Positions 9,608 through 53,057 of a stretch of DNA of 54,942 bases are shown here, piece by piece. How positions within the stretch are numbered: position 1 is the stretch's first letter; every line of letters begins with the position of its first letter. This DNA is from a virus. Both the position numbers and the translations under genes were made by a program. The stretch spans positions 1-54,942 of the IMG/VR virus record IMGVR_UViG_3300036766_000429. The stretch is one strand, 5' to 3'. The notes beneath the pieces were generated by a model. That model was not told the origin of the DNA, did not search any database, and was given only the letters and a program-made list of their open reading frames with translations.

Positions 9608-9615
9608 GAAGTTAT

Positions 9616-20634: not shown

Positions 20635-21381
20635 AAAAAATGTATTAAGTGTGGTGAAGAAAAAAAAATAAATAAAGACAATTTTTATTTTCGTAAAAGC
20701 AAAAATAATACTTATATATGTAATTCTAAATGCATAGTTTGTATTAAATTAGATAGAAAAATATACAGAGAAAACAATAAAGAAAAAATTAAAGCAACAA
20801 AAAAAATATACAGAGAAAATAATAAAGAAAAAGTACTTGCTGCATCTAAAAAATGGATAGATGAAAATAAGAAATCATACGAAGAGTACCAAAATAAATA
20901 TAGAGAGTTAAATAGAGAAAAAAGCAAGGAGCGCCATAAAAACAATAAAGAAAAAGAACAAAAACAAAATAAAGAATGGGAGTCTAAAAACAAAGAAAAA
21001 AGAAATAAATACAGAAGTGAACGAAGAAAAAATAATTGTATTATATCTATTAGAGAGGGTTTTGGTAGGGCAATTAATAAGGCTTTAAAAAAGAATTGTT
21101 CATCTAAGAAGGGTAATTCTTGCTTGCTTTATTTGCCATACACCATAGATGAATTAAAAAAGCACTTACAATCTTTGTGGGAGCCGTGGATGAATTGGGA
21201 TAATTATGGGAAATATAAAACTGGCGGCCCTAGAAAGTGGCATATAGATCATGTAATTCCACAATCATTATTACCATATCATTCTATGGATCATATTAAT
21301 TTTCAGAAATGTTGGGCGTTATCTAATTTGAGACCTTTAGACGCCGTTCAAAATATGTCAAAAGGGAAAAATGTCATTTGA
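20632..21381 (+). CDS. Zinc-finger/HNH homing endonuclease with repeated linker
   Basis: A 249-aa homing endonuclease. The ATG at 20632 is preferred over upstream TTG codons because the zinc finger begins at once (C4/C7, later C34/C37) and the bases before it are the copied end of the upstream gene, with GAAGGAAC acting as ribosome binding site. A long Lys/Glu/Asn-rich linker contains repeats of the type YRENNKEKI. The catalytic region has LPYTIDELKKHL, WEPWMNWDNYG, a KWHIDHVIPQSLLPY motif, NFQKCWAL and NLRPLD. The end (QNMSKGKNVI) runs 11 nt into the gp25-like gene, so the last residues are dictated by the target gene. Confidence 0.88.
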   Translation: MKKCIKCGEEKKINKDNFYFRKSKNNTYICNSKCIVCIKLDRKIYRENNKEKIKATKKIYRENNKEKVLAASKKWIDENKKSYEEYQNKYRELNREKSKERHKNNKEKEQKQNKEWESKNKEKRNKYRSERRKNNCIISIREGFGRAINKALKKNCSSKKGNSCLLYLPYTIDELKKHLQSLWEPWMNWDNYGKYKTGGPRKWHIDHVIPQSLLPYHSMDHINFQKCWALSNLRPLDAVQNMSKGKNVI

Positions 21382-31817: not shown

Positions 31818-34739
31818 ATGACAACTAGAACACCTGTCTCCACAATTTTTAACAAGTTTCACGATGCCGAGCAAATTACTGTTCAGGATTTGGATGTTGA
31901 ACAAAACCGAAATATAGTGACCGACGCATCGATCATTAATAACCATTTTGGGTCTGGCGTTTTGCCCTCTTCTTTAGTTCAAAACATCATATTTGACTCA
32001 GACAATTTAACACAAATTCAAGCATCAATTTTAGCGGCAGGAAATTTCGACGGGACCGGCTTACAAGCTCAATTACAACCAAGCGACACTAACCTAGGAA
32101 ACCAGTTAGAGGTAGAACTAACAGGAACATCTGCCTTTGGACGCTTAAGCACTAAAGTTTTAATAATTGGTGTAGATTTTCAAGGCTTACCACAATATGA
32201 CCGGTTTACGTTTCACAAAAGCGAAAAACAAGTAACAAGAAAACATTATGCAAGAATCCTTGGAATTTTCTTCAATGATTTCAAGGGGAATAACAATTGT
32301 TCTCGTGATTTAGGTGGCTCCATTGTTATTAGAGAGTCCTCATCGTTTGAGTTATCTCGTGATGCTATAATGGTAGCGCAAGACATAGAGCCAAACTTAT
32401 TTTTCCGCGATTTCAAGGTATCAAATCCGGCAGTTAGCCTTTATAATACAATACAGACTGGAATTGGCCCTGAGTTTAGTGTTGACTCATTAAATATTAA
32501 TACAACAGTTAAACAAAACAGATCTTTGGCAGCCGGAGATGTAACGTCTAAAATTGGCGAAAAATTTCAAGCAGCCACAAATAATATTCAAAAAATTACA
32601 CTTTTACTTGGGGCTCAGGCTAATAACGCTGTACCGGTCGCAAATGAATTTGATTGGACTGGAAGTTTGGTTATTAGCGTTTGGGCATTACAAACTACGG
32701 TAAGCTCGCCAACAGATATTGTTCCTCAGCTAGCTATAGATTTTGATCCATCAAGCCATCCATTAGCTCAATTAAGTTTAAGCCGGGCAGATTTGAAAGA
32801 TTTAGGATATGTTTTAAACGACGTTCTTCAGCCTGTTGATTTTGTTTTTAGTGCAACTCAACTAGGAATGATCACTAACAGCATAATAGTTCCTGGTAAT
32901 TTTTATGCTGTAACAATAAATCGTTCTGGCGCAGCTGGCTCTGGTGTTGTTTTTACTGGGGCGGCAAATCATAGCACGGAAAACGCACGCCTCACTCTTT
33001 TTAATAATGTTTGGGTTGATGTGCCAGAAGAAGATTTGTGGTTCCAGGTATGGACTGATGCCGCTAAAGTTGCTGACGGAATGGCGTATGATGCTGGCAA
33101 TGGTATTCAATTAGAAAAAACAGAAATCAATGCAGATGGCGCGCAGGTTGATTTCTGCCTAGATGCATTGGCCTTATCTGACTCTGGCGAAAATACTTTA
33201 AACATTGCTATAGTTCAGGCCATACAGCAGCAATCAGATCAGTCACAAGATGAACGCACTGGATCTCCAATATTTTTACGACAACAATTTGAGCCTCAGG
33301 TAAGTTTCGTTACAAATTCTGGTCTTGTTAGTTTACAATCGGTAAGTGAGCCAATCATTATCGGAGGCGCTGAAGACATTAATCCTAAAACAAATTTTGT
33401 CATACAGAAAACACAAAAACTACCAGGATTAGCAAAAGGTGATGTATTTACTGTAGTTGCTCCTGATCCCGATTTGCTTTCTAATAACCTAATAGGAAGT
33501 AAACTTATACCTGATGTTGGGTGCTCGATTATTGATTACCGCATATTTAAAACAGTTGTGTGTACAGATGGGTATGGGGACGTTAATGGAGATGGCGTAA
33601 TTGATGCTTTGGACGTGATTAGAGCGGCATATCTTTTGGGAGAAGGAATTAGTAATCCATCAACTCAACAGAAAATAATTGACGGATATATTTCTACGCT
33701 TGAATTATTACGCTGTGACGTAGATGGCGACGGCTATATTACAACTAACGACTTAAATCTAATTACTCAATATGTAAATCGACAAATACATGCATTTCCA
33801 GTCGGCAGTTCATTCACACATATGGACATCACAGTTCAAGAAAGCATTGGCAGATTCGATGGGTATTATGACTGTGGCGATGGTTATGTAAGAATAGATG
33901 GGTATAACAACAAAATTCTTGAAAGCTCTCTAAACCCATACGTTGCGATTTATGACGGTTATATAGTTACGCCAAATATTGCTGCGTCAGATGTTGTGTT
34001 TACTACTATTCCGTTTGTGCCAATAGATTATAAAATAGCTCCGCAGCCTTTCTGGGCCGATTACATGTTAGTAACTAGTAGTGATGCCAAGGTTGTGCCG
34101 GCAGCATTTAGCTTTCCTGATTCCGTTGTGGTTAAAGACTGTGTGCCTGCGTTGCTATTAAATTGCCGAGATACTACAGATATTGTTCCGAAGAGTGATC
34201 CGGGAAGAAACGATATAATGATTCCTGATAACCTTATAATGCGTAAGGGGGCTATCTTAAATCCAGACGGAACAAATTATAGATTAGATTTTGAGGTTGG
34301 GCAGATTGTTTTGAATCTTCCCGCGGTGCCACTGGAAGAAGTTTCATTGAATATATTTGATAAATTTGTAGTTGAAGCCGATGCTGGATTTACTATTGCC
34401 GGATTGCCAGCCATGAAGTTTTCTGATTGTACTTATGTTAAATCAGACGCTTTACTAAAAAATCAACTTAGATTTGATGTGTCGATCCAAGCCTGGTACC
34501 CATCAATCGATGGATATTCTGTGACAGACGGATATGGGGTGATAGTGGATAACACGATAGGAGTATATTTAGATCATAACACAGGAATATTAACGCTGAC
34601 TATGCAGGATTTATCAGTAGATCCTATATTTAAAACGTTAGTGTCAAAAATACAAATAACCGTATATCTTAAAAAAGCGGGGTTCGTCAACAACCCCTTA
34701 ATAATAGATAGTTCACAATTTGTGGGATTATTAAGTTAA
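31818..34739 (+). CDS. Virion/tail fibre-associated protein with a dockerin-like module
   Basis: A 973-aa protein. The N-terminal 550 residues are beta-rich and structural in character (for example LVISVWALQTTV and EEDLWFQVWTDAAK). Residues about 582-645 form a type I dockerin-like pair: a calcium loop DVNGDGVID followed by helix ALDVIRAAYLL, then DVDGDGYIT followed by NDLNLITQYVN. Several DGY motifs surround it. The C-terminal third is again beta-rich. Dockerins bind cohesins with calcium in cellulosomes, and dockerin-like modules also occur in other proteins. In a phage it may be a calcium-stabilised linker or an attachment module. It is last in the tail block and next to an inserted HNH gene. 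Confidence 0.75.
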   Translation: MTTRTPVSTIFNKFHDAEQITVQDLDVEQNRNIVTDASIINNHFGSGVLPSSLVQNIIFDSDNLTQIQASILAAGNFDGTGLQAQLQPSDTNLGNQLEVELTGTSAFGRLSTKVLIIGVDFQGLPQYDRFTFHKSEKQVTRKHYARILGIFFNDFKGNNNCSRDLGGSIVIRESSSFELSRDAIMVAQDIEPNLFFRDFKVSNPAVSLYNTIQTGIGPEFSVDSLNINTTVKQNRSLAAGDVTSKIGEKFQAATNNIQKITLLLGAQANNAVPVANEFDWTGSLVISVWALQTTVSSPTDIVPQLAIDFDPSSHPLAQLSLSRADLKDLGYVLNDVLQPVDFVFSATQLGMITNSIIVPGNFYAVTINRSGAAGSGVVFTGAANHSTENARLTLFNNVWVDVPEEDLWFQVWTDAAKVADGMAYDAGNGIQLEKTEINADGAQVDFCLDALALSDSGENTLNIAIVQAIQQQSDQSQDERTGSPIFLRQQFEPQVSFVTNSGLVSLQSVSEPIIIGGAEDINPKTNFVIQKTQKLPGLAKGDVFTVVAPDPDLLSNNLIGSKLIPDVGCSIIDYRIFKTVVCTDGYGDVNGDGVIDALDVIRAAYLLGEGISNPSTQQKIIDGYISTLELLRCDVDGDGYITTNDLNLITQYVNRQIHAFPVGSSFTHMDITVQESIGRFDGYYDCGDGYVRIDGYNNKILESSLNPYVAIYDGYIVTPNIAASDVVFTTIPFVPIDYKIAPQPFWADYMLVTSSDAKVVPAAFSFPDSVVVKDCVPALLLNCRDTTDIVPKSDPGRNDIMIPDNLIMRKGAILNPDGTNYRLDFEVGQIVLNLPAVPLEEVSLNIFDKFVVEADAGFTIAGLPAMKFSDCTYVKSDALLKNQLRFDVSIQAWYPSIDGYSVTDGYGVIVDNTIGVYLDHNTGILTLTMQDLSVDPIFKTLVSKIQITVYLKKAGFVNNPLIIDSSQFVGLLS
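33568..33771 (+). other. Dockerin-like calcium-binding region inside the 973-aa protein
   Basis: Two EF-hand-like loops with the spacing of a type I dockerin repeat: Asp positions 1, 3 and 5 are D-V-N-G-D-G and D-V-D-G-D-G. Each is followed by a hydrophobic helix, with an insert of about 20 residues (SNPSTQQKIIDGYIS region) between the repeats. The calcium ligands are all present by eye. Confidence 0.8.
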
Positions 34740-34780: not shown

Positions 34781-35804
34781 ATGAAAAATAAAACAAGCCA
34801 CACAACAATTATAAATAATAAAAAATTTCAGAAGTGTACTGGGCCTTGTGGCTTAGAAAAAGAATTAACTGCTGATAATTTTTATTGGCGCAAGGATATT
34901 AATAACTGGAGGACGGAGTGAATGTAAAAGGAAAAAAGAAAAAGAAAAACATATCAAAAAACAAAAAATAACCAATATAATTATAGTTAATGGCGTAGAG
35001 TTCAAAAAGTGCACTGGAAATTGTGGTCAATTTAAAGAGCTAAATAAAAAAAATTTTGACTGGAGAAATGATACAAATAATTGGGTTGGTAAATGTAGAA
35101 ATTGTAAGTCAGAACACAGTAAAAAATATATAAACACCCTCAATAAACAAGAGCTAAAAACAAAAAGAAAAGAATATAATACAAATAATAAAGAAAAAAT
35201 AAAAATATGTGGCCAAAAATACAGAGAAAATAATAAAGAAAAAATAAAAGAAGCAAAAAAAGAATATTTGAAAAACAATGAAGAAAAAATTAAAGCACAA
35301 GCCAAAGAATATAGAGATAATAATAAAGAAAAAATTGAGAAATATTACAAAGAGTATCTTGCGGCAGATGAGAATATAAAAAAAAGAAATAAATATTATA
35401 GAGACAGATATCATAATAATTTAGCGTTTAGATTAAGAGATCGTATGAGCGGGTCTATACGAAACGCTATGAAAAAAAATAAATCTAAAAAGTCAAAATC
35501 AATAATGAAAAGCGTTTCATATACCGGGTTAGATTTGGTAGAGCATATGGTTTCTAAATTTGAATGGTGGATGACCAAAGAAAACTATGGTATATATGAT
35601 AAAAAAACATGGGATGATAATTACCCTTCTACATGGACTTGGCAAATAGATCATATTATTCCAGTATCTGATTTTAATTTTACAAGTGAAGATGATGAAG
35701 ATTTTAAGAAATGTTTTGCTATTGAAAATTTAAGGCCATATTCTGCAAAACAAAATGTATTAGATGGGGCAAGCAGAATTAGACATAAAAAGAAGAGCTT
35801 ATGA
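34781..35804 (+). pseudogene. Frameshifted zinc-finger/HNH homing endonuclease with two N-terminal fingers
   Basis: The ATG at 34781 opens a frame with a finger start (KCTGPCGLEKELTADNF, then YWRKD) that ends at a TGA at 34919 in the middle of the second Cys pair. From 34917 another frame is open to 35804. It begins SECKRKK, then has a second full finger (KCTGNCGQFKELNKKNF and KCRNCK), a linker with YRENNKEKI repeats, and an intact HNH region (WQIDHIIPVSDF, FKKCFAIENLRP, DGASRIRHKK). One extra base near 34916 explains the break. The first finger is close to that of the HNH gene at 43132. No ATG exists early in the second frame; TTG at 35268 would give only the C-terminal part. It may be a decayed gene, an error, or frameshift-expressed. 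Confidence 0.75.
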
Positions 35805-36901
35805 ATATTAAAATAATGCAATTTCTTTACCAAAATCATTCCTGGAGTGTGTGTGGCTGGAATATTTGCCGCTCGTTATTAAAACTAAACCATATTGTTG
35901 ATTTATATCCGACTGACAAGGATAAAACATGTTATTTGCCAGAATATTTAAAACCATATCAAATAAATAAAATTGATAAAAAATATGATATGCAAATTAG
36001 CTATACCGCCCCTATAAATTTTCAATCATATTTACTTGATGGCAAAAGCAAGCGATATGGAATGTGGGCTTATGAATTTGGTGGCAAAAACACTCTTCCA
36101 GAAGGATTTGCAAAGTATCACAAATATACAGATAAAATACTAGTGCCATCTAATTTTTGCAGGCAAATATTTATAGACAGTCATATACCCCAAGAAAAGG
36201 TAATAACTATACCTCACGGAATTCATTTGGAGGATTTTGAAAATAAAACAAAGTACACATTAAAAACTAACAAAAAAATTAAATACCTAGTTGTAATAGG
36301 CCAGCCACATGCTAGAAAAAATATTTCAGGTATATTTGAGGCGTGGGGACGGGCATTTAATAAAACAGATGACGCATGCTTAGTATTTAAAGTTAATCCA
36401 CAAAAAGAAAAAATAAAAAAACATATGTTTGATGTTGATTTTTATGAAATATATAATGAATTCTTACGTAAATATAAAAATCACGCCGAAATAGAAATAA
36501 TAACAGAATTCATTCCAAATATGGTAGAACTAACTAACGCTTGTAATATTATGTTTTCAATGTCAAATTGCGAAGGGTTTTATATACCAGGAATAGATGC
36601 GTTAGGCGCCAATATATTTAATATTTGCCCTAACTACGGCGGACAATTAGATTTTTTAAACAATAAAAATTCATTATTAATTAAAGGGGTAATAGTTAGA
36701 GCTAAATCTAAATATACATATTGGAACAGTAATCCATATGCACAAATGTTTGAACCTAATATAGACCACGCAGCAGAATTACTTAAAAAAGCATATAACG
36801 AATACGACTCTTTACTTCTAGATTTTATGCCATCGATATTAGAAACTAGAGAGGTGTTCACATGGGATAATGCCGTAAAAAAGATATTAGAAATCCAGTG
36901 A
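35801..36901 (+). CDS. Glycosyltransferase, GT-B fold, GT4-like
   Basis: A 366-aa protein starting on the stop of the HNH gene (ATGA). It has the two-domain layout of GT-B enzymes. The N-terminal half has KILVPSNFCRQIFIDSHIP and VITIPHGIHLEDFE (the usual domain linker region). The C-terminal half has KYLVVIGQPHARKNISGIFEAW, a YIPGIDALG segment (GT4 enzymes use a similar place to hold the donor phosphate and sugar), and CNIMFSMSNCEGF. It probably transfers a sugar from a nucleotide donor in the cytoplasm. It is the first gene of the glycan cluster; donor and acceptor are unknown. Confidence 0.75.
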   Translation: MNIKIMQFLYQNHSWSVCGWNICRSLLKLNHIVDLYPTDKDKTCYLPEYLKPYQINKIDKKYDMQISYTAPINFQSYLLDGKSKRYGMWAYEFGGKNTLPEGFAKYHKYTDKILVPSNFCRQIFIDSHIPQEKVITIPHGIHLEDFENKTKYTLKTNKKIKYLVVIGQPHARKNISGIFEAWGRAFNKTDDACLVFKVNPQKEKIKKHMFDVDFYEIYNEFLRKYKNHAEIEIITEFIPNMVELTNACNIMFSMSNCEGFYIPGIDALGANIFNICPNYGGQLDFLNNKNSLLIKGVIVRAKSKYTYWNSNPYAQMFEPNIDHAAELLKKAYNEYDSLLLDFMPSILETREVFTWDNAVKKILEIQ

Positions 36902-37020
36902 GACTGTAATCTTCTTAAATCAAATATGAGGCTGTTTCAAAAATAACGACCTTGGCTATGTCTGGACAATAAAAGGTCAAAATTGAGTCGAGGAAGGTGT
37001 TAGGGAGCTATATAAACAAT

Positions 37021-37722
37021 ATGTCAGCGAGACTTTCAATAATAATTCCGGTATACAATTCGGCTCCATATACCAAGGCATGTTTAACTGATTTATCTTA
37101 TTTGCCACCGGGCGTAGAAATAGTAGTGGTAGATAATGGCAGCACAGATGAAACGCCTGATATAATTAAAGAACTAAACCTACCAAATATAAAATATGAG
37201 CGTCTAGAAAGAAATTTTGGCTTCGCCGGCGGTTGCAACTGGGGCTATTTAATAAGTTCTGGCAAATATGTAATGTTTCTAAATAACGATATTAGGGTTC
37301 GCGGTGATAAAACTAATTGGATTGATAAATGTTTAGAGAAGGCTGACACACATTTAGTTGGTCCGGCATTGGGTATTTTAGATTTGAATTTTAATTTTGC
37401 CAGTGAAGTAGAGGATTTCCCTAAATATAAGTGTCATACGTATATTAGTGGATGGTGTTTGACTAGTTCTAGGGAGATATTTGATAAGCTCATTATACCT
37501 CCATACACTGGGCCGTTCACTGAAGAGTTTGGAAAAGCTTACTTTGAGGATTCTGACCTTTCTTTAAGGGCAGCCGAATTAAACATACCATTAGAGATAG
37601 TAAAAATACCTGTTGTTCATTTTGGAAAGACTACTAGTAAAAAGCTAAACACATTATCATTGTATATGCCTGCCAAAAGGAAATTTATAGAAAAATGGAA
37701 AACCCGAGTACCCAAGAAATAA
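37021..37722 (+). CDS. Glycosyltransferase family 2
   Basis: A 233-aa GT-A enzyme: LSIIIPVYNSAPYTKAC at the start, VVVDNGSTDETPD, the NFGFAGGCNWGY donor-site motif, and MFLNNDIRVRG as metal-binding segment. The acceptor region has YFEDSDLSLRAAEL. The ATG at 37021 is chosen because the fold begins right after it; AGGGAG at 37002-37007 is somewhat far upstream, and a GTG at 36997 is the alternative. The 119-nt gap before it (36902-37020) has only a weak GACCTT/AAGGTC inverted repeat. It overlaps the next small gene by 28 nt. Confidence 0.85.
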   Translation: MSARLSIIIPVYNSAPYTKACLTDLSYLPPGVEIVVVDNGSTDETPDIIKELNLPNIKYERLERNFGFAGGCNWGYLISSGKYVMFLNNDIRVRGDKTNWIDKCLEKADTHLVGPALGILDLNFNFASEVEDFPKYKCHTYISGWCLTSSREIFDKLIIPPYTGPFTEEFGKAYFEDSDLSLRAAELNIPLEIVKIPVVHFGKTTSKKLNTLSLYMPAKRKFIEKWKTRVPKK

Positions 37723-37907
37723 TAGACGCATTAAATATATTAAGTTGCAGCACTATTCCGTATTTAATAATGTCTGCTATGTTTTGTATATCATATATTT
37801 TTAATTTTGACACTGCGACTACAATATCATCAATTTTGTTTAGTGGGATAATTTCGTCATGTATTGTCGGATATAAGGCCTTTAAAAACATAACAGAGCA
37901 TAGATGA
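37695..37907 (+). CDS. Small membrane protein with two predicted helices
   Basis: A 70-aa protein with two hydrophobic segments, about residues 19-36 (STIPYLIMSAMFCISYIF) and 42-62 (TTISSILFSGIISSCIVGYKAF), and a polar tail KNITEHR. It overlaps the GT2 gene before it by 28 nt and the GT2 gene after it by 4 nt (ATGA), so it fits into the operon rather than being a chance frame. Size and shape would suit a holin or a membrane helper for glycan transfer, but nothing identifies the function. Confidence 0.6.
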   Translation: MENPSTQEIIDALNILSCSTIPYLIMSAMFCISYIFNFDTATTISSILFSGIISSCIVGYKAFKNITEHR

Positions 37908-38731
37908 ACCTTAGTATATTAACGCTTTCGTGGAATGGGTTGGATAAATTAAAAACTCTTTACGGAGGAGTGTCTGACAATTGTTCTTATTTGCCTAAAA
38001 ACATACAGTATACCTGGCACATAAGAGATAACGGATCTTCTGATGATACGATTAAGGTGGTTAATGGTTGGGGGCGAAATTGGATTAAAACATATGATAT
38101 AGGACACAATCGACATTCATTTTCTGCCGGCATGAATTTTTTGTTTGATAAAGTGGCTCCAGCAGATGATGATTTAATATTGCTTCTTAATAATGATGTT
38201 GAGTTTGGCGATATGGAATCTTTATCTAAAATGATTCAGTTAATGAGCAAACCCAATGCGGCGGTTGTTGGGGCTAGGCTTTTATATGCTGGCACAAACA
38301 AAATTCAATTCGGAGGAACAATTTTTTCTTCTAAGTACGGCAATCTAGCTTGGCATTATAGGGCGGGAGAAGAATCAGATAAGGCGGCAGAAAAGAATAG
38401 ATATTTTCAAGCAGTAACGGCGGCGGTGTGTTTAGTTAAAGCATCAAGTTTTAAAAGGGTTGGCGGGTTTGATGAAGAATTCATGTGGTCATTTGAGGAC
38501 GTTGATTTGTGCTTAAAAATAGGGCAAACAGAGAAAATAGCATATTGCGGAGAGACAAAAATATACCACGAAGAATCAGCGTCTCTAAAAAAGAATCCTG
38601 TCAATAAAATGTTCATGCAGCACAATGTTAATCATTTTAAATCTAAGTGGTGGGAGAATGGCAAGCCAAAATACAAAATTGATCATGATTTATATTTAAA
38701 AGATTCTGGATATAATGAAATCAAAGTATAG
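37904..38731 (+). CDS. Glycosyltransferase family 2, rhamnosyltransferase-like
   Basis: A 275-aa GT-A enzyme with LSILTLSWNGLDKLKTL, RDNGSSDDTIKVV, GHNRHSFSAGMNFLF, LLLNNDVEFGD (metal site), AVVGARLLYAG, AAVCLVKASSFKRVGGFDEEFMWSFEDVDLCLKIG (the conserved acceptor loop with ED) and a terminal lid region. This pattern is typical of GT2 enzymes that add rhamnose or related sugars. It lies within a run of overlapping genes. The substrate is not readable from sequence. Confidence 0.87.
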   Translation: MNLSILTLSWNGLDKLKTLYGGVSDNCSYLPKNIQYTWHIRDNGSSDDTIKVVNGWGRNWIKTYDIGHNRHSFSAGMNFLFDKVAPADDDLILLLNNDVEFGDMESLSKMIQLMSKPNAAVVGARLLYAGTNKIQFGGTIFSSKYGNLAWHYRAGEESDKAAEKNRYFQAVTAAVCLVKASSFKRVGGFDEEFMWSFEDVDLCLKIGQTEKIAYCGETKIYHEESASLKKNPVNKMFMQHNVNHFKSKWWENGKPKYKIDHDLYLKDSGYNEIKV

Positions 38732-39692
38732 CACAAAATATTTTCCATTTTCTCCCGGAATACCTTGGAAGATAAAAAATAATAAATACGTTGTCCCAGA
38801 AATTACTACAGATACATGGAAAGATACGCTAAAAGATCGTGATATTGTTATTTTATCTCACGGAGGATTATTAGAATCATTTTTCTCTTTATATTTTGTT
38901 GCCGCGATAAATAAAATAGAGTCTAACAATATATATTGGGCTGGAAATAAAGAATTTGAGCCATTAATAAAAGCCAACGCCATATCCAAATATAAAGAAG
39001 TGCCAGATATAGCTCATAAATATCCGGTGCCTTTATTTTTAGGTAATGATAATTTGGCGTATTTTAATTGTCTGAATAATTATTTGATTATGCAAAGTTA
39101 TTATTTAAGAAATGATTATGAACGCACAGAGCCCGTTGTAAAGCAAATATTTGATAATTTGATGTTAGAATATAAATCTGAATACAAACCGAAATTTAAT
39201 TACTTTGATTATGTTGAATATAAAAAATGGGCGGATACAAATAAATTTTATGATAATCAGAAATTTATCTTTATAATATTAAACCACACAAAATATTCAA
39301 ATCATAATATAGATTGTTTAAATTGGGGATGGGATGATGTTCTTAATTTTGCGGCTATAATAAAACGTTTTGATATTAATATAGTTGTGTGCTCTGATAA
39401 TAATATTGTTTTGCCCTATAAAGCCGGTATATTTATTGCCCCGGTTAAATTACCTATAATATTTCCGTTATTAGAAAAATCTTGGATGATATTATCGCAG
39501 GATATTGACTATTTATTAGTTTCATTATGGGCATCTAAATCAAATGTAGTTTTTAATAATTTGCGCAAACTAAAAAAGAGCGCATTTAACGTATATAAAA
39601 ATGCCGAGGTTTTAGAGTCAGAGTGCCAAATAATCGGATCTAATGATTTAAACCCAATGGAAGTATATACAGCAATAGAAGGATTAGTTTAA
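38715..39692 (+). CDS. Hypothetical protein of the glycan cluster
   Basis: A 325-aa soluble protein overlapping the preceding GT2 gene by 17 nt and sharing TAATG with the next GT2. Near residue 45 it has RDIVILSHGGLLESFFSLYF, and in the second half FIFIILNHTKYSN and MILSQDIDYLLVSLWASKSN, suggesting two Rossmann-like halves as in GT-B enzymes. No clear family motif was recognised. Context suggests a glycosyltransferase-like role, stated as inference only. Confidence 0.6.
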   Translation: MKSKYSTKYFPFSPGIPWKIKNNKYVVPEITTDTWKDTLKDRDIVILSHGGLLESFFSLYFVAAINKIESNNIYWAGNKEFEPLIKANAISKYKEVPDIAHKYPVPLFLGNDNLAYFNCLNNYLIMQSYYLRNDYERTEPVVKQIFDNLMLEYKSEYKPKFNYFDYVEYKKWADTNKFYDNQKFIFIILNHTKYSNHNIDCLNWGWDDVLNFAAIIKRFDINIVVCSDNNIVLPYKAGIFIAPVKLPIIFPLLEKSWMILSQDIDYLLVSLWASKSNVVFNNLRKLKKSAFNVYKNAEVLESECQIIGSNDLNPMEVYTAIEGLV

Positions 39693-40435
39693 TGACTGCT
39701 AACATAATGTGTGTAACGTACAACAGATTACCATTGACCAAGCAAACATTTGATTCTTTGTGCGAAACAACAGATTATCCTTTTAATTTAATTGTTATAG
39801 ATAATGCTTCGTCCGATGGCACCAAGGAATATTTAGAAAGTTTAAAACTAGAGTGTAAATATTTAAAACAAACTGTAATAAGGTATAATTCTGAAAATAA
39901 AGGTATTGCTGTTGGTAGAAATCAAGGGCTGGTGGAGGCTAACAAACTAGATGGAGAATGGTTAGTCACTTTAGACAACGACGTTATTTTGCCGAATGGA
40001 TGGTTGAGTGAATGCATTGATGTCCTAGAAAATAATCCTACATATGCTGCGTGTGGAGTAAATTTTGAAGATACTAAATATCCATTGGTAACAAAAAACG
40101 GAGTAGAGTTCCAGAATAAATCTCAGGGTAATTTGGGAACCGCCTGCATGTGCTTCAATAAAAAAATACATAAACTGATCGGTTTTTTTAATACGTCTTA
40201 TGGCCATTATGGGCTTGAAGATGCGGACTATGGTCTTAGGCTTAGAGCAATAAAGCTTCAATTATGTTATTTAAAAGAAAACGGTAATCACATTGGCTCT
40301 GGAGAAAATGACAAAGGAGAATACAGGAAGTGGAAAACGGAAACCCATGATAAATTTCTAAAAGACTTTAACGCTAATTGTGCTGCTTATTACAACAGAA
40401 CAAAACCAATATACATTCCATTCAAAGAGGAATAA
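39692..40435 (+). CDS. Glycosyltransferase family 2
   Basis: A 247-aa GT-A enzyme: NIMCVTYNRLPLTKQTF, LIVIDNASSDGTKEYL, the ENKGIAVGRNQGL donor-site motif, WLVTLDNDVILPNGW as metal site, and an HYGLEDADYGLRLRAI acceptor loop. It starts on the stop of the previous gene (TAATG), and the next gene follows without a gap. Transfers a sugar from a nucleotide donor; the specific sugar is unknown. Confidence 0.88.
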   Translation: MTANIMCVTYNRLPLTKQTFDSLCETTDYPFNLIVIDNASSDGTKEYLESLKLECKYLKQTVIRYNSENKGIAVGRNQGLVEANKLDGEWLVTLDNDVILPNGWLSECIDVLENNPTYAACGVNFEDTKYPLVTKNGVEFQNKSQGNLGTACMCFNKKIHKLIGFFNTSYGHYGLEDADYGLRLRAIKLQLCYLKENGNHIGSGENDKGEYRKWKTETHDKFLKDFNANCAAYYNRTKPIYIPFKEE

Positions 40436-43135
40436 TTGGATCTTGTCAGAAATATATCCATATCAGAGCTTAAAAGTTATGTTACAGCCTCTCGTGCGTG
40501 TAAATTTGGGCAAACATATGAACTAGACGCTAAATTTGGAGCTTTAGAATTAGATTTTAGCGTTTTTAATACAGCTGATATATGTAATGTATATGTTCGG
40601 CGCAAATCTGGAAACGGCCAGTCTATTATAAATGATAAAGAAACGAGCATATTAAGTAAATCCCGCCAAAATTTACAAATACAACTAGATAGTAGCAAAA
40701 AATTAATAATCAAAAGGACTCAAAATAGTTTAGGAATAATAGAAATTTTAAGCATAGACTTGTATACATCTGGAACTAATGGAGAATCGAAAGTGTCAGA
40801 ATGGAAAAATACATTAAACAGATGCAAATCATATAAATGTATTCGTATTGTTGACGGTCGTCTATATGCTTCAGAGGGTGCTCTTGTTGAGGCGGATAAC
40901 ATTGCACAGGTATCAACTAATCCTCCAAATATGTTTAAACTAAGTGATGGAAATGTTAAATTTCTTGGCACTTGCGAAATAACAGAATTACAAATAAATA
41001 GCGAAAGGCAAAATGTTCCAGTTTTATATCAGCTATCGGAGATGCCCCCAGCGCCTATTACATTACAACCCATAGCGTACAAAGTAATTACATCAATGAC
41101 AAACGAACAAAGCTCAGATTCATTGCCAATATATAATGTGTTGTATGAAGCCGCCCCTAGCCATTTGTTTCGGCTTAACGCAATTAAAGATTCTAAATTT
41201 AACGGCAAAAGTATTATATTGGGAGTTAACGGCAAAATAACCATACCAATACAAGAGATACACCCAAACTCTAATTATATAGTGATAATTGAGGCAAGTA
41301 AAACAATAGGAAATGGAAAATTAACTGCGTACATTCAGTCAGCGCAGGGTGTAGAGCCGGCTTTCGCTTTTTGTTCAGAGGTTCATAGGGCAATTAACTT
41401 AAGGGTTAGTAGCTCAAACATTCCAGAAGACGGTATGTTTAAACTGGTAATAGCCCGACCTGATTCATCTACTGGCGAAGTTGCAATTTCCAAAGTCATA
41501 TTAATAGCAGATCAAAATTACAAACTACCTATAAAATACAGACCGCCGCCGTATCAAAGCCCAGTATATGACGATAATTCAATTAAAAGCACAATAATAT
41601 CAAACAAACTAGCTCCTGTAAAATTAAGGAATGAAATAGATTTGCGACCAGGGAAAGATAGAAAGTTCGTGATTATTATTCCTAGCTATAATAATGAGGG
41701 GTATGTTGTTAAAAATTTAGAGTCAGCACTAAGCCAAAGCTACAAAAACTACAGAGTAATATATATAGATGACTGTTCTTCCGACAGCACATTCGAGACT
41801 GCTAAAGCAACAATTGATCGTACTGGAGGTAATATAAGAACAAATCTAGTAAAAAACCTAACTAGAGTTGGTGCATTAGAAAATTTATATAACGCAATTC
41901 ACAGTTGTGCGGACGATGAGATTGTTTTGACTTTAGACGGAGATGACTGGTTAGCACATAATCACGTTCTTAATTACCTTAACCAGGCGTATAATAGCGG
42001 CGACGTATGGATGACATATGGGCAGTACGAAAACAGTAACGATAGGACGATAGGAACTTGCCAACAAATACCAAATAATATTATTGATAAAAATGGATTT
42101 AGGGGTTATGCATGGTGTTCTTCTCATTTAAGAACATTTTATGCTTGGTTATTTAAAAAAATCAATAGAGATGATTTGATGGCCGATGGAAGGTTCTATA
42201 GTATGACTTGGGATTTTGCTATGATGTTCCCTATGCTTGAAATGGCGGGTCAACACTCAAGATTTATGAACGACATATTATATATTTATAATTTAGACAA
42301 TCCATTAAACGATCACAAAGTTGATAGAAGATTACAGGCGCAACTTGACAAATCAATAAGAAACAAACAAAAATATAATACGATAAATATTTCTAGCGAT
42401 AAAAATCCAAACAAAACAAAAATTGGTTTATTGTTAATATCTACCGGAAAATATCACTCATTTATAGACCCACTAATATCATCAGCAGATAGATACTTTT
42501 TTAATACTGATGATTTTGAGGTATCTTACTTTTTATTTTCTGACAAGGAACATGATTTGGGCACTCATCGAAATGTAACGCAAATCCATATTGATCATGT
42601 TCCGTTTCCATACGCAACCATGGATAGATTTAAACATTTTACTAATAATAGTGATAAATTTGATGGTATGGATTATCTTTATTATGTAGATATAGATTGT
42701 TTGTTTATGAACGCCGTTTCTTCTGAGGCGCTAGGAGATCTTGTGGGGGTAAGGCATTGTGGATACTATAGTGGAGGCGGAACTTTTGAAAACAATACCA
42801 AATCAGTATTTTGCAGACCTCTAAATAATTACAAACATTACTATGGCGGCGGTTATCAAGGAGGAAAAAAAGAAAACTACTTACAGCTAGCAAAATGGTG
42901 TTATGAGAAGATAGAAGAAGATTTAAAAAATAACATTATACCAATTTATCATGACGAAACAGCTTTAAACACATATTTTTCCGAAACCCCGCCAACAATA
43001 GAATTATCGCCTCAGTACCATTACCCTCAGAACGCGGAGCACTTTATAAAAGAGCAGCCTAAGATGCGTTATTTAGCTGATATGCTGCCTATAATTTTAT
43101 TGTTAGAAAAAGACCACAAAGAGATAAGATCATGA
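40436..43135 (+). CDS. Fusion of unknown domain, GT2 and GT6 (blood-group transferase family) glycosyltransferase
   Basis: An 899-aa multidomain protein. TTG at 40436 is the start, with AGAGGA at 40426-40431 at proper spacing and no early ATG. Residues 1-400 are beta-rich and unrecognised. Residues about 405-650 are GT2 (FVIIIPSYNNEGYVVKN, DDCSSDSTF, VLTLDGDDW near 500). Residues about 658-880 fit GT6, the family of the human ABO enzymes: KIGLLLISTGKY, the metal motif D752-I753-D754 in YYVDIDCLF, GVRHCGYYS, HYYGGGYQGGKKE, H839-D840-E841 in YHDETALNTYF, and ELSPQYHYP. GT6 enzymes add Gal or GalNAc in alpha-1,3 linkage. The DXD motif is kept, unlike the NXN of many bacterial members. The stop overlaps the next ATG (ATGA). 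Confidence 0.85.
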   Translation: MDLVRNISISELKSYVTASRACKFGQTYELDAKFGALELDFSVFNTADICNVYVRRKSGNGQSIINDKETSILSKSRQNLQIQLDSSKKLIIKRTQNSLGIIEILSIDLYTSGTNGESKVSEWKNTLNRCKSYKCIRIVDGRLYASEGALVEADNIAQVSTNPPNMFKLSDGNVKFLGTCEITELQINSERQNVPVLYQLSEMPPAPITLQPIAYKVITSMTNEQSSDSLPIYNVLYEAAPSHLFRLNAIKDSKFNGKSIILGVNGKITIPIQEIHPNSNYIVIIEASKTIGNGKLTAYIQSAQGVEPAFAFCSEVHRAINLRVSSSNIPEDGMFKLVIARPDSSTGEVAISKVILIADQNYKLPIKYRPPPYQSPVYDDNSIKSTIISNKLAPVKLRNEIDLRPGKDRKFVIIIPSYNNEGYVVKNLESALSQSYKNYRVIYIDDCSSDSTFETAKATIDRTGGNIRTNLVKNLTRVGALENLYNAIHSCADDEIVLTLDGDDWLAHNHVLNYLNQAYNSGDVWMTYGQYENSNDRTIGTCQQIPNNIIDKNGFRGYAWCSSHLRTFYAWLFKKINRDDLMADGRFYSMTWDFAMMFPMLEMAGQHSRFMNDILYIYNLDNPLNDHKVDRRLQAQLDKSIRNKQKYNTINISSDKNPNKTKIGLLLISTGKYHSFIDPLISSADRYFFNTDDFEVSYFLFSDKEHDLGTHRNVTQIHIDHVPFPYATMDRFKHFTNNSDKFDGMDYLYYVDIDCLFMNAVSSEALGDLVGVRHCGYYSGGGTFENNTKSVFCRPLNNYKHYYGGGYQGGKKENYLQLAKWCYEKIEEDLKNNIIPIYHDETALNTYFSETPPTIELSPQYHYPQNAEHFIKEQPKMRYLADMLPIILLLEKDHKEIRS

Positions 43136-43923
43136 TAAAATTAATAAAATGTATAGGAAAATGTGGTTTAGAAAAAGAGGCCAGCAAAGACAATTTTTAT
43201 TGGCGCAAAGATTCTAATAAATGGCGCGCGGAATGTATTATTTGTGTATGTAAAAGAAGAGGCGATAATCATCAAAAAAACAAAGAAATAGAAAATAAAA
43301 AAGCAAAACAAAGATACGAAAACAATAAAGAAAAAATTGCAATTTATAATAAAAAATACAGAGAGGATAATTCAAAAGAAATATCAAAAAACAAACAAAA
43401 ATATTATTTAGAAAACAAAGTTACTGTATTAAATAATGTAAAAATATACAGACCTAAAAATATAGACAAAATAAATGAATACAAAAGAGAGTATCATAAA
43501 ATAAAATACAAAGAAAATTTGATTTATAAACTAAGACATGATGTATCTTCTAAAATTAGTAAGGGCCTAAAAAAGAATTTAGGATCTAAGTTTGACGAAT
43601 CAATAACGATATATTTATGTTACACAACTGGGGTTTTAATATCTTATATAACGTCATTATTTGAGCCGTGGATGACCTGGGAAAACAGAGGAAAATATAA
43701 TAAAAAAACTTGGAATGATAATGATCCTTCTACTTGGACTTGGCAATTAGATCATATTATTCCGCAGTCAGATCTGCCATATGCCGAAATGTCGCATAAC
43801 GCGGATAGTAATTTTCAAAAATGTTGGGCCTTGTCTAACTTAAGGCCATTAAGTTCTAAGCAAAATGTTATTGATGGAGTCAGAAGAACTCGCCATAAGA
43901 AAACAAATGCCAGTAACCTATAA
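43132..43923 (+). CDS. Zinc-finger/HNH homing endonuclease between two glycosyltransferase genes
   Basis: A 263-aa homing endonuclease. The finger has C7/C11 and C35/C38, followed by a Lys/Asn/Glu-rich linker with degenerate YRENNKEKI-like repeats (about 50-125). The catalytic part has FEPWMTWENRG, STWTWQLDHIIPQSDLPY (the DH pair near residue 207), NFQKCWALSNLRPLSSKQN and DGVRRTRHKK, with an extra tail TNASNL read from the start of the fucosyltransferase gene. Start and stop overlap its neighbours by 4 and 17 nt, so it sits between them without interrupting either. Confidence 0.9.
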   Translation: MIKLIKCIGKCGLEKEASKDNFYWRKDSNKWRAECIICVCKRRGDNHQKNKEIENKKAKQRYENNKEKIAIYNKKYREDNSKEISKNKQKYYLENKVTVLNNVKIYRPKNIDKINEYKREYHKIKYKENLIYKLRHDVSSKISKGLKKNLGSKFDESITIYLCYTTGVLISYITSLFEPWMTWENRGKYNKKTWNDNDPSTWTWQLDHIIPQSDLPYAEMSHNADSNFQKCWALSNLRPLSSKQNVIDGVRRTRHKKTNASNL

Positions 43924-44632
43924 AGATCTTGGTAAAAATGGCCGCTTGGGCAACGCTATTTTCGAAATGTGCGCAGCTATTGGCCTGGCAGTAAAGCACA
44001 GTGATAGCTACATCTTTCCTTATTGGCAATATTCTGAAAGTTTTAACTTTCCATCAGGGAGCTTTATCGCAGAGAACAACATTAAATATGATAATACATA
44101 TGTGGAAAAATCATTTACGTACAACGAAATACCATATAGCCAAAACTTGAACCTGGAGGGATATTATCAAAGTTACAAATATTTCGAGCATTGTAAGCAT
44201 TATATTTCAGATGTGTTTACGATGAAAAATATGTCGCCAATAAATAATACGGCAATTCATGTGAGGCGTGGAGATTATATTAATTTAGGTAATTCGTACT
44301 ATATAGATTTGGCTGCCACAAATTATTACGAGCAAGCAATGGAAATTATTGGGCCGGGTAATTATTTGATATTTTCTGACGATCCTGCTTGGTGCAGAAA
44401 CAGATTTAAAGGGATAGATGTTGTCGAGTCAGGCGGAGATGTTATACAAGACTTTAATATGTTGCTAAGGTGTGAAAACCAAATCATAGCAAATAGCAGT
44501 TTTTCTTGGTGGGCGGCATATTTAAACAGAAACCCAAACAAAAAAGTAATAGCTCCTAAAAATTGGTTTGGGCATAAATTATCTTATAACGATACTAGGG
44601 ATCTTATACCAACAGATTGGATGCTTATATGA
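43907..44632 (+). CDS. Glycosyltransferase family 11, alpha-1,2-fucosyltransferase-like
   Basis: A 241-aa protein. The ATG at 43907 is chosen because the GT11 fold starts at once (NGRLGNAIFEMCAAIGLA). The key family motif HVRRGDY is at residues 118-124 (GDP-fucose binding, with the two Arg). Further conserved parts are NYYEQAMEII, YLIFSDDPAWCR, DFNMLLRCENQIIANSSFSWWAAYLN and VIAPKNWFG. GT11 enzymes transfer fucose from GDP-fucose to galactose in alpha-1,2 linkage. Length is slightly below the usual 270-300 because the middle is compact. The product would be an H-type structure, the natural acceptor of GT6 enzymes such as the one encoded just upstream. Linkage is inferred from the family. Confidence 0.9.
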   Translation: MPVTYKDLGKNGRLGNAIFEMCAAIGLAVKHSDSYIFPYWQYSESFNFPSGSFIAENNIKYDNTYVEKSFTYNEIPYSQNLNLEGYYQSYKYFEHCKHYISDVFTMKNMSPINNTAIHVRRGDYINLGNSYYIDLAATNYYEQAMEIIGPGNYLIFSDDPAWCRNRFKGIDVVESGGDVIQDFNMLLRCENQIIANSSFSWWAAYLNRNPNKKVIAPKNWFGHKLSYNDTRDLIPTDWMLI

Positions 44633-50052: not shown

Positions 50053-51045
50053 ATGAAGTTTATTTGTCACAGAGGTAATATAAACGGGCCAAATACACAA
50101 TATGAAAATAAACCTGAATATATTCAGAATGCTCTGGCCGCCGGCTATGATGTAGAGGTTGACGTTTGGTTAATGTCTGATGGATTTTACCTTGGGCACG
50201 ATATGCCGCACTATAAAATAGATAAGTATTTTTTAAGAAATCAAAGACTATGGGTTCATTGTAAAAATTCAAAGGCATATTTTGATTTGATAAAACACAA
50301 TGACGTAAATTGTTTCTTTCAAACAGATGAAGAGTTTGTGTTAACATCAAGAGGGTATATTTGGGCACATTCAAAAGCAACAACACGGAATGAAAAAACT
50401 ATTATTGTACAATTAAACTGTAGCGATTGGGATAGATTAAATCCTCCTTTTGCAATTTGTTCAGACTATGTACAGCGTAATAGTACCGACTGGGATGTTT
50501 GCAATCCACAGGCTGTTCCGCAAAATATATCGCAACATAAACTTCCATTTGACTTGTTAATTATAGATATAGATGGAGTTATGACCGATGGAACGAAAAT
50601 GTATGACAAAGAAGGTAAAATATTCGGCAAACGCTACTCAGATCTAGATTTTACGGCAATTAAAAGGTTTATGGCGGCGGGCGTAAATGTTTGTTTTTTA
50701 TCTGGCGACAAAACAATAAACGAAGCAATGGCAAAAACAAGAAAAATTGATTTTTATCATAATGAACCAGGAGTAGATAAGGCAGATATGCTTACAGAAA
50801 TAAAAAAACACTACAAAGCAAATAGCACAGCATATATCGGTGATGATTATTATGATATTTCAATAATGAATTCTGTTAATCTGTCATTTTGCCCCCAAAA
50901 TTCTCCAGCGGCAGTACGGCGTACAGCATCAGCAATAATTAATGTTACTGCTGGTAATGGGGTTATTGCCGGGTTATATGACTTGTTTGAAGAAAAAATT
51001 CCATATGTTTTCCCAAAAGATTCGCCAGATGTCAATCCAAGATGA
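50053..51045 (+). CDS. Fusion of GDPD-like domain and KdsC-type HAD phosphatase
   Basis: A 330-aa protein with two parts. Residues 1-160 match the glycerophosphodiester phosphodiesterase fold: H6-R7-G8, E35-x-D37, H49-D50, the usual metal and catalytic set, though the domain is short. Residues about 165-318 match the HAD phosphatase KdsC (KDO 8-phosphate phosphatase): motif I DIDGVMTDG with D172 and D174, motif II LSGD, a Lys in GVDKADML, and motif IV GDDYYDIS (263-270). KdsC-type enzymes dephosphorylate sugar phosphates. The next two genes are a sugar kinase and an NTP-transferase/isomerase fusion. The role of the GDPD part (perhaps releasing glycerol or sugar phosphates) is unclear. Confidence 0.82.
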   Translation: MKFICHRGNINGPNTQYENKPEYIQNALAAGYDVEVDVWLMSDGFYLGHDMPHYKIDKYFLRNQRLWVHCKNSKAYFDLIKHNDVNCFFQTDEEFVLTSRGYIWAHSKATTRNEKTIIVQLNCSDWDRLNPPFAICSDYVQRNSTDWDVCNPQAVPQNISQHKLPFDLLIIDIDGVMTDGTKMYDKEGKIFGKRYSDLDFTAIKRFMAAGVNVCFLSGDKTINEAMAKTRKIDFYHNEPGVDKADMLTEIKKHYKANSTAYIGDDYYDISIMNSVNLSFCPQNSPAAVRRTASAIINVTAGNGVIAGLYDLFEEKIPYVFPKDSPDVNPR

Positions 51046-51892
51046 ATATGACCTAACCATACTTGGCAATGCTATTGTGGACGACATTTATTGCACGTCA
51101 ACATGGGCAAAAGAAGGCACCTCCAATACCTTTGAAAGTTATAAGACAGCTATAGGTGGGATAGGCAATATTGTCAAAGCACTTGATGGCAGCAACCTGA
51201 AAATACTGGCGGAGACTGTTATTGGTAACGATTCAGACGGCAACAAAATTATAAAATACTTTGAATCAAAAAAGATTGATACAAATGCTAAAAAGTCCCT
51301 TTTGCCAACAAGCAGGGCTTTAATTTTAAGTAATTTGAAATCAAAAGAACGTACCAGCTTTGTTAGTTGGGGCTGCGGGCAAGATGCAATTACCCCTTCT
51401 TGTAAAAAAACAAAATGGACACACATCTCATATCTAGATACCTTGGCACCATTTGACATAAAAGAAATTCGCAAAAATTCTACTATCATTTCTGCCGACC
51501 TTTGCCTTTCTAATCCGCCAACTGATGTTATAGAGACCACCTTACAGCAATTGTCATATTTAGACTATTTATTTATATCAGAAACGGAAGCTGAATGGCT
51601 AATTGGTAAAAAAATATCTATTAGTTCTGGTTTTGATTTTATAGAAAAATATAGACTTAAAACACTTATTTACCACACAAAACTTAAAACAATAATTATA
51701 AATAGCGAATCATATATCGAAGTACCCGGGCTACATTTAACTATTGAAAACATCAATGTTCTTGGCGCTGGTGATGCATATTGTGCTGGGTTTATCTATT
51801 ATCAGCTAAAAAATAATGAAAATGCTATAAATGCTGCCTTATGGGCACACGAGTCTGCTACTAAATTCATATCAACATATGAAAAGGTATAA
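51029..51892 (+). CDS. PfkB-family sugar kinase
   Basis: A 287-aa protein. The ATG at 51029 is chosen because the fold begins with YDLTILGNAIVDDIY; it overlaps the preceding gene by 17 nt. Conserved elements are YKTAIGGIGNIVKAL (substrate lid/Gly motif), ETVIGNDSDGNKI, YLFISETEAEWLIG, and the signature VLGAGDAYCAGF with D249 as the likely catalytic base. The family phosphorylates sugars or sugar phosphates (for example the HldE kinase domain acting on heptose 7-phosphate). Together with the neighbours it could make a sugar 1-phosphate for nucleotide transfer. Confidence 0.85.
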   Translation: MSIQDEYDLTILGNAIVDDIYCTSTWAKEGTSNTFESYKTAIGGIGNIVKALDGSNLKILAETVIGNDSDGNKIIKYFESKKIDTNAKKSLLPTSRALILSNLKSKERTSFVSWGCGQDAITPSCKKTKWTHISYLDTLAPFDIKEIRKNSTIISADLCLSNPPTDVIETTLQQLSYLDYLFISETEAEWLIGKKISISSGFDFIEKYRLKTLIYHTKLKTIIINSESYIEVPGLHLTIENINVLGAGDAYCAGFIYYQLKNNENAINAALWAHESATKFISTYEKV

Positions 51893-53057
51893 TTTATTGG
51901 TGCCGCTAGCTGGGAAAGGCCAAAGAATGATTAATGGCGGTTACACAGTACCAAAGCCATTAATTTTGGCAGGAGATAGGCACATAATAGATTATTCATT
52001 AGGGTCAATAGATATAACGAACTGTAACTTAATATTTGTCGTTAGAAGAGATCATATTTGTAACTACGCAATTGACAAGGTATTACAGAGCAAATACGGA
52101 AAAGATATAACTATAGTTATTTCAGAGGAAGATACAGACGGATCTGTCTCAAGTTGCTATTTAGCTAAAGATATTATTAATAACGATATTCCTTTAATTG
52201 TATTTTGTCCAGATATATACTTTGAACCAAAATTTGTGCCAACTGACGAAATATTTAAAGATGACGGACTAATTTTGACATTTAAAGCAAATTCCACAAA
52301 TTATAGTTATGTTCAGCATGACGAAAATAACGTAGTAACAAAAACCGCAGAAAAAATAGTCATTAGTGACAACGCTTCTGTTGGTGTTTATTGTTTTAAA
52401 ACCGGAAGAACGTTTTTGCAACTTGCCGAGATTGCAGTTAATACCCGTTTAGCCAATGCGAAAGATGAGCATTATATCTGCCCACTATACAATATGCTTA
52501 TAGCAAAAGGCGGAGTTGTTAGAATAAAACAGGTTCCGTTAATGTATATAATGGGAACCCCGGATGAAATGACTTTTTTTAAGAATGTTATTTTCCCATA
52601 TTTTTTGCAGCGCTCTTTTATATTGTGTTCAGATCACTCTGGGTTTGAGCTAAAAGAATCTGCTAAAAAAATAATTGAAGAATTAAATATTAACTATATG
52701 GATTGTGGATGCTATTCTGCTGATGATTGTGATTATGACGATTATGTGTCACAAGCAGTGGAAACAAAAAAATATTTTCCAGGAGCTATAGTTTTAGGGT
52801 TCTGTAGGTCTGGTCAAGGTGTTAACATATGCGCTAATAAACACAAGGATATTAGAGGCGCCTTAATAACAACTCCGCAGGCTGCCTCTCTTGGCATAAG
52901 ACATAATGCTGCTAATTTTTTCGCTGTTGCGGCCGAAAACACAACAGAAAATGCTATAAGAGAAATAATACAAATATTGATGGTAGAAAAATTTGAAGGA
53001 GGAAGACACCAAAACAGACTGCAAAAAAGATATATAAATGATCGTCTCAAACATTAG
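51879..53057 (+). CDS. Fusion of sugar nucleotidyltransferase and RpiB/LacAB isomerase
   Basis: A 392-aa protein; the start ATG (51879) overlaps the kinase stop by 14 nt. Residues about 5-240 match sugar-phosphate nucleotidyltransferases: LLVPLAGKGQRM, PKPLILAGDRHIIDYSL, FCPDIYF as metal site, and KDEHYICPLYN. Residues about 247-380 match RpiB/LacAB isomerases: ILCSDHSGFELKE, DCGCYSADDCDYDDYVSQAV, GFCRSGQGVNICANKHKDIRGAL (with C in the usual active-site loop), and RHNAANFFAV. An RpiB domain normally interconverts ketose and aldose phosphates. The fusion joins an early isomerase step and the final activation step in one protein. Substrate unknown. Confidence 0.85.
   Translation: MKRYNLLVPLAGKGQRMINGGYTVPKPLILAGDRHIIDYSLGSIDITNCNLIFVVRRDHICNYAIDKVLQSKYGKDITIVISEEDTDGSVSSCYLAKDIINNDIPLIVFCPDIYFEPKFVPTDEIFKDDGLILTFKANSTNYSYVQHDENNVVTKTAEKIVISDNASVGVYCFKTGRTFLQLAEIAVNTRLANAKDEHYICPLYNMLIAKGGVVRIKQVPLMYIMGTPDEMTFFKNVIFPYFLQRSFILCSDHSGFELKESAKKIIEELNINYMDCGCYSADDCDYDDYVSQAVETKKYFPGAIVLGFCRSGQGVNICANKHKDIRGALITTPQAASLGIRHNAANFFAVAAENTTENAIREIIQILMVEKFEGGRHQNRLQKRYINDRLKH

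What the first reader, a model, noticed from the sequence alone, without database searches (positions are those of the whole stretch)
40436..44632. Neighbouring GT6 and GT11 enzymes could build a blood-group A/B-like glycan
The C-terminal third of the 899-aa protein matches GT6, the ABO transferase family (DID metal motif, HDE triad region). The next glycan gene is a GT11 alpha-1,2-fucosyltransferase (HVRRGDY). In humans and in some bacterial O-antigens these two activities act in series: GT11 makes Fuc-alpha-1,2-Gal, and GT6 adds Gal or GalNAc alpha-1,3 to it. A phage carrying both side by side would be striking. Acceptor and donor are inference.
Basis: partly seen in the sequence, partly recalled or inferred. 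Interest (0 to 1): 0.85.

Follow-up and report, generated by a model that had tools for sequence, protein, structure and literature searches.

The report
Phage gene pair for blood-group-like sugar
This virus of bacteria carries, next to each other, relatives of the two human enzymes that build the A/B blood-group sugar, and a survey shows that many phages and bacteria keep these two genes together, so the pair probably works in series, although its exact product and target are untested.

Summary
Residues 656-867 of the 899-aa protein are GT6 (Pfam 94.8 bits, cut-off 25; predicted fold matches human ABO transferase and BoGT6a). The 241-aa protein is GT11 (81.1 bits; fucosyltransferase fold). 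An HNH-like endonuclease gene lies between them. In five of eight close relatives the two genes directly overlap or abut, without that insert.

Among 41 non-redundant viral GT6 loci, 36 carry GT11 nearby. It is adjacent in 13 (null 5, p = 5e-4) and within two genes in 22 (null 10, p = 5e-5). Bacteria show the same pattern. Two separate genomes fuse GT6 and GT11 in one polypeptide. GT11 is often found without GT6, but GT6 rarely without GT11, as expected if GT6 needs the GT11 product. Relatives of the window phage carry GDP-fucose genes in the same cluster. Acceptor, linkage and donor are not shown: GT11 includes one alpha-1,3 enzyme, Trp300 is Tyr here, and the donor tripeptide Gly-Gly-Gly fits GalNAc or both donors.

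Phage GT6 itself was already known in cyanophages, where GT11 is a neighbour. What appears new is the breadth of the coupled module, the fusions, and the HNH insertion hot spot.

The parts
40436..43135 (+). 899-aa fusion: N-terminal beta-sandwich domains, GT2, GT6
40436..41515 (+). N-terminal region (residues 1-360): two predicted beta-sandwich domains of unknown role; replaced by a SAM methyltransferase domain in the relatives L016 and L022, and apparently in L018 and L021
   Evidence: AlphaFold2; alignment; Pfam of L016 and L022
41663..42355 (+). GT2 domain (residues 410-640)
   Evidence: PF00535 62 bits
42401..43132 (+). GT6 domain (residues 656-899)
   Evidence: PF03414 94.8 bits; fold match to ABO and BoGT6a
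42689..42697 (+). DID (DXD) metal motif, residues 752-754
   Evidence: alignment; DXD in 49 of 49 viral GT6 representatives
42950..42958 (+). HDE, residues 839-841 (ABO H301-D302-E303); preceded by Tyr instead of Trp300
43109..43129 (+). C-terminal KDHKEIR (K-x-H-x3-R, spacing of the diphosphate-binding Lys/Arg of metal-dependent GT6)
   Evidence: PMC3961637
43132..43923 (+). HNH-like endonuclease gene inserted between GT6 and GT11, overlapping both
   Evidence: sequence motif DHIIP..N..NLRPL; paralogs in window and L021; no Pfam hit
43907..44632 (+). 241-aa GT11 (fucosyltransferase family)
   Evidence: PF01531 81.1 bits; phrog_2644 156.8 bits; fold
44258..44278 (+). HVRRGDY GT11 motif
   Evidence: sequence; conserved H118, R120, R121, D123
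35801..40435 (+). upstream glycan genes (GT4/GT1-like, GT2, GT2-like, unassigned 325 aa, GT2-like 247 aa), with synteny in L017, L019 and L020
44617..54808 (+). downstream glycan genes: methyltransferases, GT1, GT2-like, HAD, PfkB kinase, nucleotidyltransferase-RpiB fusion, FkbM

Best explanation
The GT2-GT6 fusion and the GT11 are consecutive enzymes of one phage glycan pathway. GT2 probably adds an earlier sugar, GT11 transfers L-fucose from GDP-fucose onto a galactose-type residue, and GT6, a metal-dependent retaining transferase, then adds GalNAc or Gal alpha-1,3 to the fucosylated residue, giving a blood-group A/B-like branch. Shown here: family membership, fold, catalytic residues and conserved coupling of GT6 with GT11. 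Inferred: order of action, linkages, donors and acceptor. The glycan most likely decorates a phage virion protein, since the cluster follows baseplate and large virion-type genes and no flippase, polymerase or oligosaccharyltransferase was found; this last step is a guess.
For: GT6 and GT11 profiles and folds. Five of the eight closest relatives (L015, L016, L017, L019, L022) have GT11 directly overlapping or abutting the GT2-GT6 gene, and L020 ends inside GT6. In 41 non-redundant viral GT6 loci, GT11 is adjacent in 13 (null 5.1, p=5e-4) and within two genes in 22 (null 9.8, p=5e-5), upstream 12 times and downstream 10 times. In bacteria, 23 of 33 are adjacent (null 9.0, p=5e-5). GT11 is the commonest neighbour family (35 of 41), and an SDR family with Gmd and other epimerases is next (30 of 41). 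Two GT6-GT11 fusions: viral L051 (GT2-GT6-GT11-GT7C, 975 aa) and the chromosome of Candidatus Haliotispira prima, L292 (GT6-GT11-GT2, 907 aa). Asymmetry: GT11-centred viral loci have GT6 in only 6 of 57 groups. Gmd in 7 of 9 relatives' records, next to an Fcl-like gene in four. Biochemical precedent: BoGT6a (PMC3961637) and E. coli O86 WbnI with an alpha-1,2-fucosyltransferase (PMC4202792).
Against: No activity data. GT11 contains an alpha-1,3-fucosyltransferase, HhFT2 (PMC4202792), so alpha-1,2 is not proven. In the window GT6, ABO Trp300 is Tyr and BoGT6a Trp66 is Phe. The window itself holds no Gmd or Fcl gene that was detected, although its record is probably a fragment. In cyanophages GT11 is common anyway: it is near GT25 in 24 of 32 groups.
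Confidence: 0.62

Rival explanations
1. The two enzymes belong to one glycan cluster but act on separate branches; proximity reflects the crowding of many transferases in one operon.
For: The window cluster holds several other transferases; GT11 is also near GT25 in 24 of 32 cyanophage groups, though usually not close.
Against: Proximity beyond permutation nulls in viruses and bacteria, both gene orders, two fusions in separate genomes, asymmetric co-occurrence.
Confidence: 0.17
2. GT6 and GT11 act in series but on other sugars: the GT11 makes another linkage or uses another GDP-sugar, and GT6 caps a product that is not the A/B antigen.
For: GT11 HhFT2 is alpha-1,3 (PMC4202792); some relatives have Gmd but no clear Fcl (L017); the Fcl-like proteins of L015, L016 and L095 score only 237-263 bits against a 500 cut-off.
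Against: P-SSM2, DSL-LC02 and the L022 phage have Fcl at 435-462 bits, near the cut-off; residues equivalent to ABO His233, Thr245 and Glu303, which contact the acceptor galactose, are kept in the window GT6 (the contacts themselves from general knowledge of ABO structures).
Confidence: 0.16
3. The product is built on phage DNA bases rather than on a protein or lipid.
For: Virus-encoded transferases can hypermodify DNA with diverse glycans (cited in PMC12619734).
Against: The cluster lies beside a baseplate gene and large virion-type genes; the GT6 and GT11 members characterised so far act on oligosaccharides.
Confidence: 0.05

Closest known systems
Prochlorococcus phage P-SSM2 glycan cluster (PSSM2_265 GT11, PSSM2_268 GT6, PSSM2_257 Gmd)
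   Same: GT11 and GT6 with two genes between them in one glycan operon with Gmd and a GDP-fucose-synthase-like gene
   Different: GT6 is a stand-alone 231-aa protein, 33% identical to the window GT6; order is GT11 then GT6; cyanophage
BoGT6a of Bacteroides ovatus (4AYJ)
   Same: GT6 fold (target-normalised TM 0.86-0.89) and most active-site residues
   Different: BoGT6a has NXN and is metal-independent; the window has DXD and the K-x-H-x3-R tail expected of metal-dependent GT6
Human ABO transferase (GTA/GTB)
   Same: DXD, His233, Thr245, Asp302, Glu303; best fold match is the cisAB mutant L266G/G268A
   Different: No membrane stem; fused to GT2; Trp300 is Tyr; donor tripeptide GGG instead of LGG/MGA
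E. coli O86 WbnI (GT6) and its alpha-1,2-fucosyltransferase
   Same: Bacterial GT6 acting after an alpha-1,2-fucosyltransferase to make blood group B (PMC4202792)
   Different: Host O-antigen; activity proven there, not here

Membership tests
GT6 (CAZy, PF03414) | Profile match above curated cut-off | tested here: met
   94.8 bits, cut-off 25
GT6 (CAZy, PF03414) | GT-A fold of GT6 | tested here: met
   Matches ABO and BoGT6a structures, E about 1e-21
GT6 (CAZy, PF03414) | DXD or NXN motif and catalytic Glu in HDE | tested here: met
   DID and HDE
GT6 (CAZy, PF03414) | Retaining alpha-1,3 Gal/GalNAc transfer | not testable with these tools
   Needs enzyme assay
GT11 (PF01531) | Profile match above cut-off and HxRRxD motif | tested here: met
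   81.1 bits, cut-off 23.9; HVRRGDY
GT11 (PF01531) | Fold of GDP-fucose-using transferases | tested here: met
   FUT8, POFUT1, Arabidopsis FUT1; distant, TM up to 0.60 normalised to the query
GT11 (PF01531) | alpha-1,2-fucosyltransferase activity on galactose | not testable with these tools
   Needs enzyme assay; one GT11 member is alpha-1,3 (PMC4202792)
Blood-group A/B biosynthetic module | alpha-1,2-FucT and GT6 genes together | tested here: inconclusive
   GT11 and GT6 genes together: met, with conserved proximity and fusions; that this GT11 is an alpha-1,2 enzyme is not shown
Blood-group A/B biosynthetic module | GDP-L-fucose supply | tested here: inconclusive
   No Gmd/Fcl seen in the window record; present in the clusters of relatives
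Blood-group A/B biosynthetic module | GT6 uses fucosylated acceptor; product GalNAc/Gal-alpha-1,3-(Fuc-alpha-1,2)-Gal | not testable with these tools
   Needs assay or glycan analysis

The most novel reading that the evidence does not exclude
Phages are a large reservoir of complete A/B-antigen-type pathways (Gmd, Fcl, GT11, metal-dependent GT6), in the window's lineage concentrated in a multifunctional GT2-GT6 enzyme coupled to GT11, and decorate their own particles with blood-group A/B-like sugars; the DXD class of GT6 to which vertebrate ABO belongs is mostly viral among the sequences sampled.
Probability: 0.3. Interest if true: 0.85.

Novelty: new variant of a known kind. Interest (0 to 1): 0.6.

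Why it matters
If the pair works as inferred, many aquatic phages make sugars that resemble human A/B antigens, which bears on how phage particles or infected cells are recognised and on the source of bacterial and perhaps vertebrate GT6 genes. It also gives a testable rule: GT6 in phages depends on GT11. The fusions are compact candidates for one-pot synthesis of A/B-type glycans.

Tried and rejected
A single-sequence viral scan found no relatives; the alignment query solved this. A GT25-centred control was too conserved at 70% identity (one group) and is usable only at 90%. The megablast search of phage records gave nothing. Literature searches for phage GT6 with fucosyltransferase found only PMC3961637 (two cyanophages with GT6) and reviews; several key papers are not held. 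That the pair is rare in phages was rejected. That the HNH gene belongs to the glycan pathway was rejected, since it is absent between GT6 and GT11 in five relatives. Tree placement of vertebrate ABO (support 0.76, long branch, midpoint root) was judged too weak to claim an origin.

Full report
Observation. The window is a whole 54,942-base IMG/VR record, probably a fragment of a larger genome, with a T4-type baseplate wedge gene (phrog_6, 111 bits) and a long one-strand glycan cluster from about 35.8 kb to the end. ORF 40436-43135 encodes 899 aa. Residues 656-867 match GT6 PF03414 at 94.8 bits and residues 413-538 match GT2 PF00535 at 62 bits. The best solved relatives are BoGT6a and human ABO. 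ORF 43907-44632 (241 aa) matches GT11 PF01531 at 81.1 bits and phrog_2644 at 156.8 bits. Between them, 43132-43923 is an HNH-like endonuclease gene.

Structure and active site. AlphaFold2 models the GT6 domain with pLDDT mostly above 90. The top PDB match is human GTA cisAB mutant L266G/G268A (E 7e-22, target-normalised TM 0.73), and BoGT6a gives TM 0.86-0.89. Against BoGT6a numbering the window keeps T10, Y13, T70, R73, H122, T134, G156, G157, H190, D191 and E192. It has DID in place of NXN, Ala for N69, Phe for W66 and Tyr for W189, the ABO Trp300 position. The C-terminus KDHKEIR has the Lys-to-Arg spacing of six residues seen for Lys359/Arg365 of metal-dependent alpha3GT (PMC3961637). In 49 viral representatives all have DXD and 36 have K-x-H-x3-R. 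Of 67 bacterial ones 40 have NXN, none with that tail, while 17 of the 21 with DXD have it. The phage enzyme therefore resembles the metal-dependent class. The donor tripeptide is GGG (ABO 266-268: LGG for A, MGA for B), which fits GalNAc or both donors; this is inference. The GT11 model (pLDDT 91.7) matches GDP-fucose transferases FUT8, POFUT1 and Arabidopsis FUT1.

Coupling. A search of viral contigs with a GT6 alignment found 484 encoding stretches, of which 80 were kept. Eight close relatives (L015-L022, 47-61% identical) have the same GT2-GT6 fusion. In L016, L017, L019 and L022 the GT11 start overlaps the GT6 stop by four bases, and in L015 the two abut; L020 ends inside GT6. Clustering all viral loci at 70% GT6 identity left 41 groups, 36 with GT11 in the same gene run, including one fusion. 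Permuting GT6 within eight genes on each side gave p=5e-4 for adjacency (13 against 5.1) and p=5e-5 for two genes or fewer (22 against 9.8). GT11 lies upstream in 12 and downstream in 10 of these, so the order was reshuffled while proximity was kept. In bacterial genomes 23 of 33 are adjacent against 9.0 expected. L051 (viral) joins GT2, GT6, GT11 and a GT7C-like domain in 975 aa. The chromosome of Candidatus Haliotispira prima (L292) joins GT6, GT11 and GT2 in 907 aa. Domain order and sequence differ (GT6 parts 29% identical), so these look like separate fusions. The reverse search shows GT11 without GT6 in 51 of 57 groups, as expected if GT6 depends on GT11.

GDP-fucose supply. Gmd is in 7 of 9 records of relatives, beside an Fcl-like gene in four (L022 436 bits, L095 263, L016 259, L015 237; cut-off 500). 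P-SSM2 and DSL-LC02 have Fcl at 462 and 435 bits. Within the fetched flanks of the 41 viral groups, 13 have a strict Gmd match and 8 a strict Fcl match. The window record ends 12 kb after GT6 and no Gmd was seen in it.

HNH insert. The HNH gene starts in the ATGA of the GT6 stop and ends inside the GT11 start. L021 has another HNH gene at the same junction, and L018 has a short insert that looks like a remnant. The window holds four other ORFs related to it. This junction is a recurrent insertion site.

Prior knowledge. GT6 in two cyanophages was noted in 2014 (PMC3961637). GT6 and GT11 are annotated in P-SSM2 and ACG-2014f, and GT11 beside the GT6 gene in B23. Serial action is established in E. 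coli O86, and BoGT6a makes A antigen on 2'-fucosyllactose (PMC4202792; PMC3961637). No held paper was found that describes the recurrent phage pair, its statistics or the fusions; this is limited to the open-access library.

Limits. The viral set was found through a pattern around the HDE motif, so it is biased to canonical GT6. Gene calls are ORF-based. One group collapses 33 mostly cyanophage loci. The permutation does not model phylogeny beyond the 70% clustering. The GT11-centred set was chosen by similarity to the window. The sugar target was not established. The Pfam searches of window and L017 genes showed no flippase, polymerase or oligosaccharyltransferase, which favours direct stepwise transfer, but this is weak evidence.

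Noticed in passing
window 43132-43923; also 359-1639, 4146-4799, 20572-21381, 35268-35804: Five related HNH-type ORFs in one 55-kb record, one intercalated at the GT6/GT11 start-stop overlap; L021 carries one at the same junction and L018 a probable remnant: a homing-type hot spot.
   Followed up: partly
window 31818-34739: 973-aa protein beside the glycan cluster with a dockerin type I match (33.1 bits, cut-off 22.9); ORFs of the same length sit at the same place in L017, L019 and L020.
   Followed up: no
window 40436-41515; L016, L018, L021, L022: N-terminal module swap in the same GT2-GT6 core: two beta-sandwich domains in the window group, a SAM methyltransferase in the other group (Pfam-confirmed in L016 and L022).
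   Followed up: partly
window 50053-53057: HAD phosphatase, PfkB kinase and a nucleotidyltransferase-RpiB fusion in a row, resembling a small nucleotide-sugar pathway of unknown product.
   Followed up: no
L292 (Candidatus Haliotispira prima chromosome) 7995-10718: GT6-GT11-GT2 fusion of 907 aa in a bacterial chromosome, with NGT instead of DXD/NXN in the GT6 part.
   Followed up: partly
fold search of the 899-aa model: Top viral match is a 958-aa GT6 of a Megaviridae environmental sample, so giant viruses of eukaryotes may also carry GT6.
   Followed up: no
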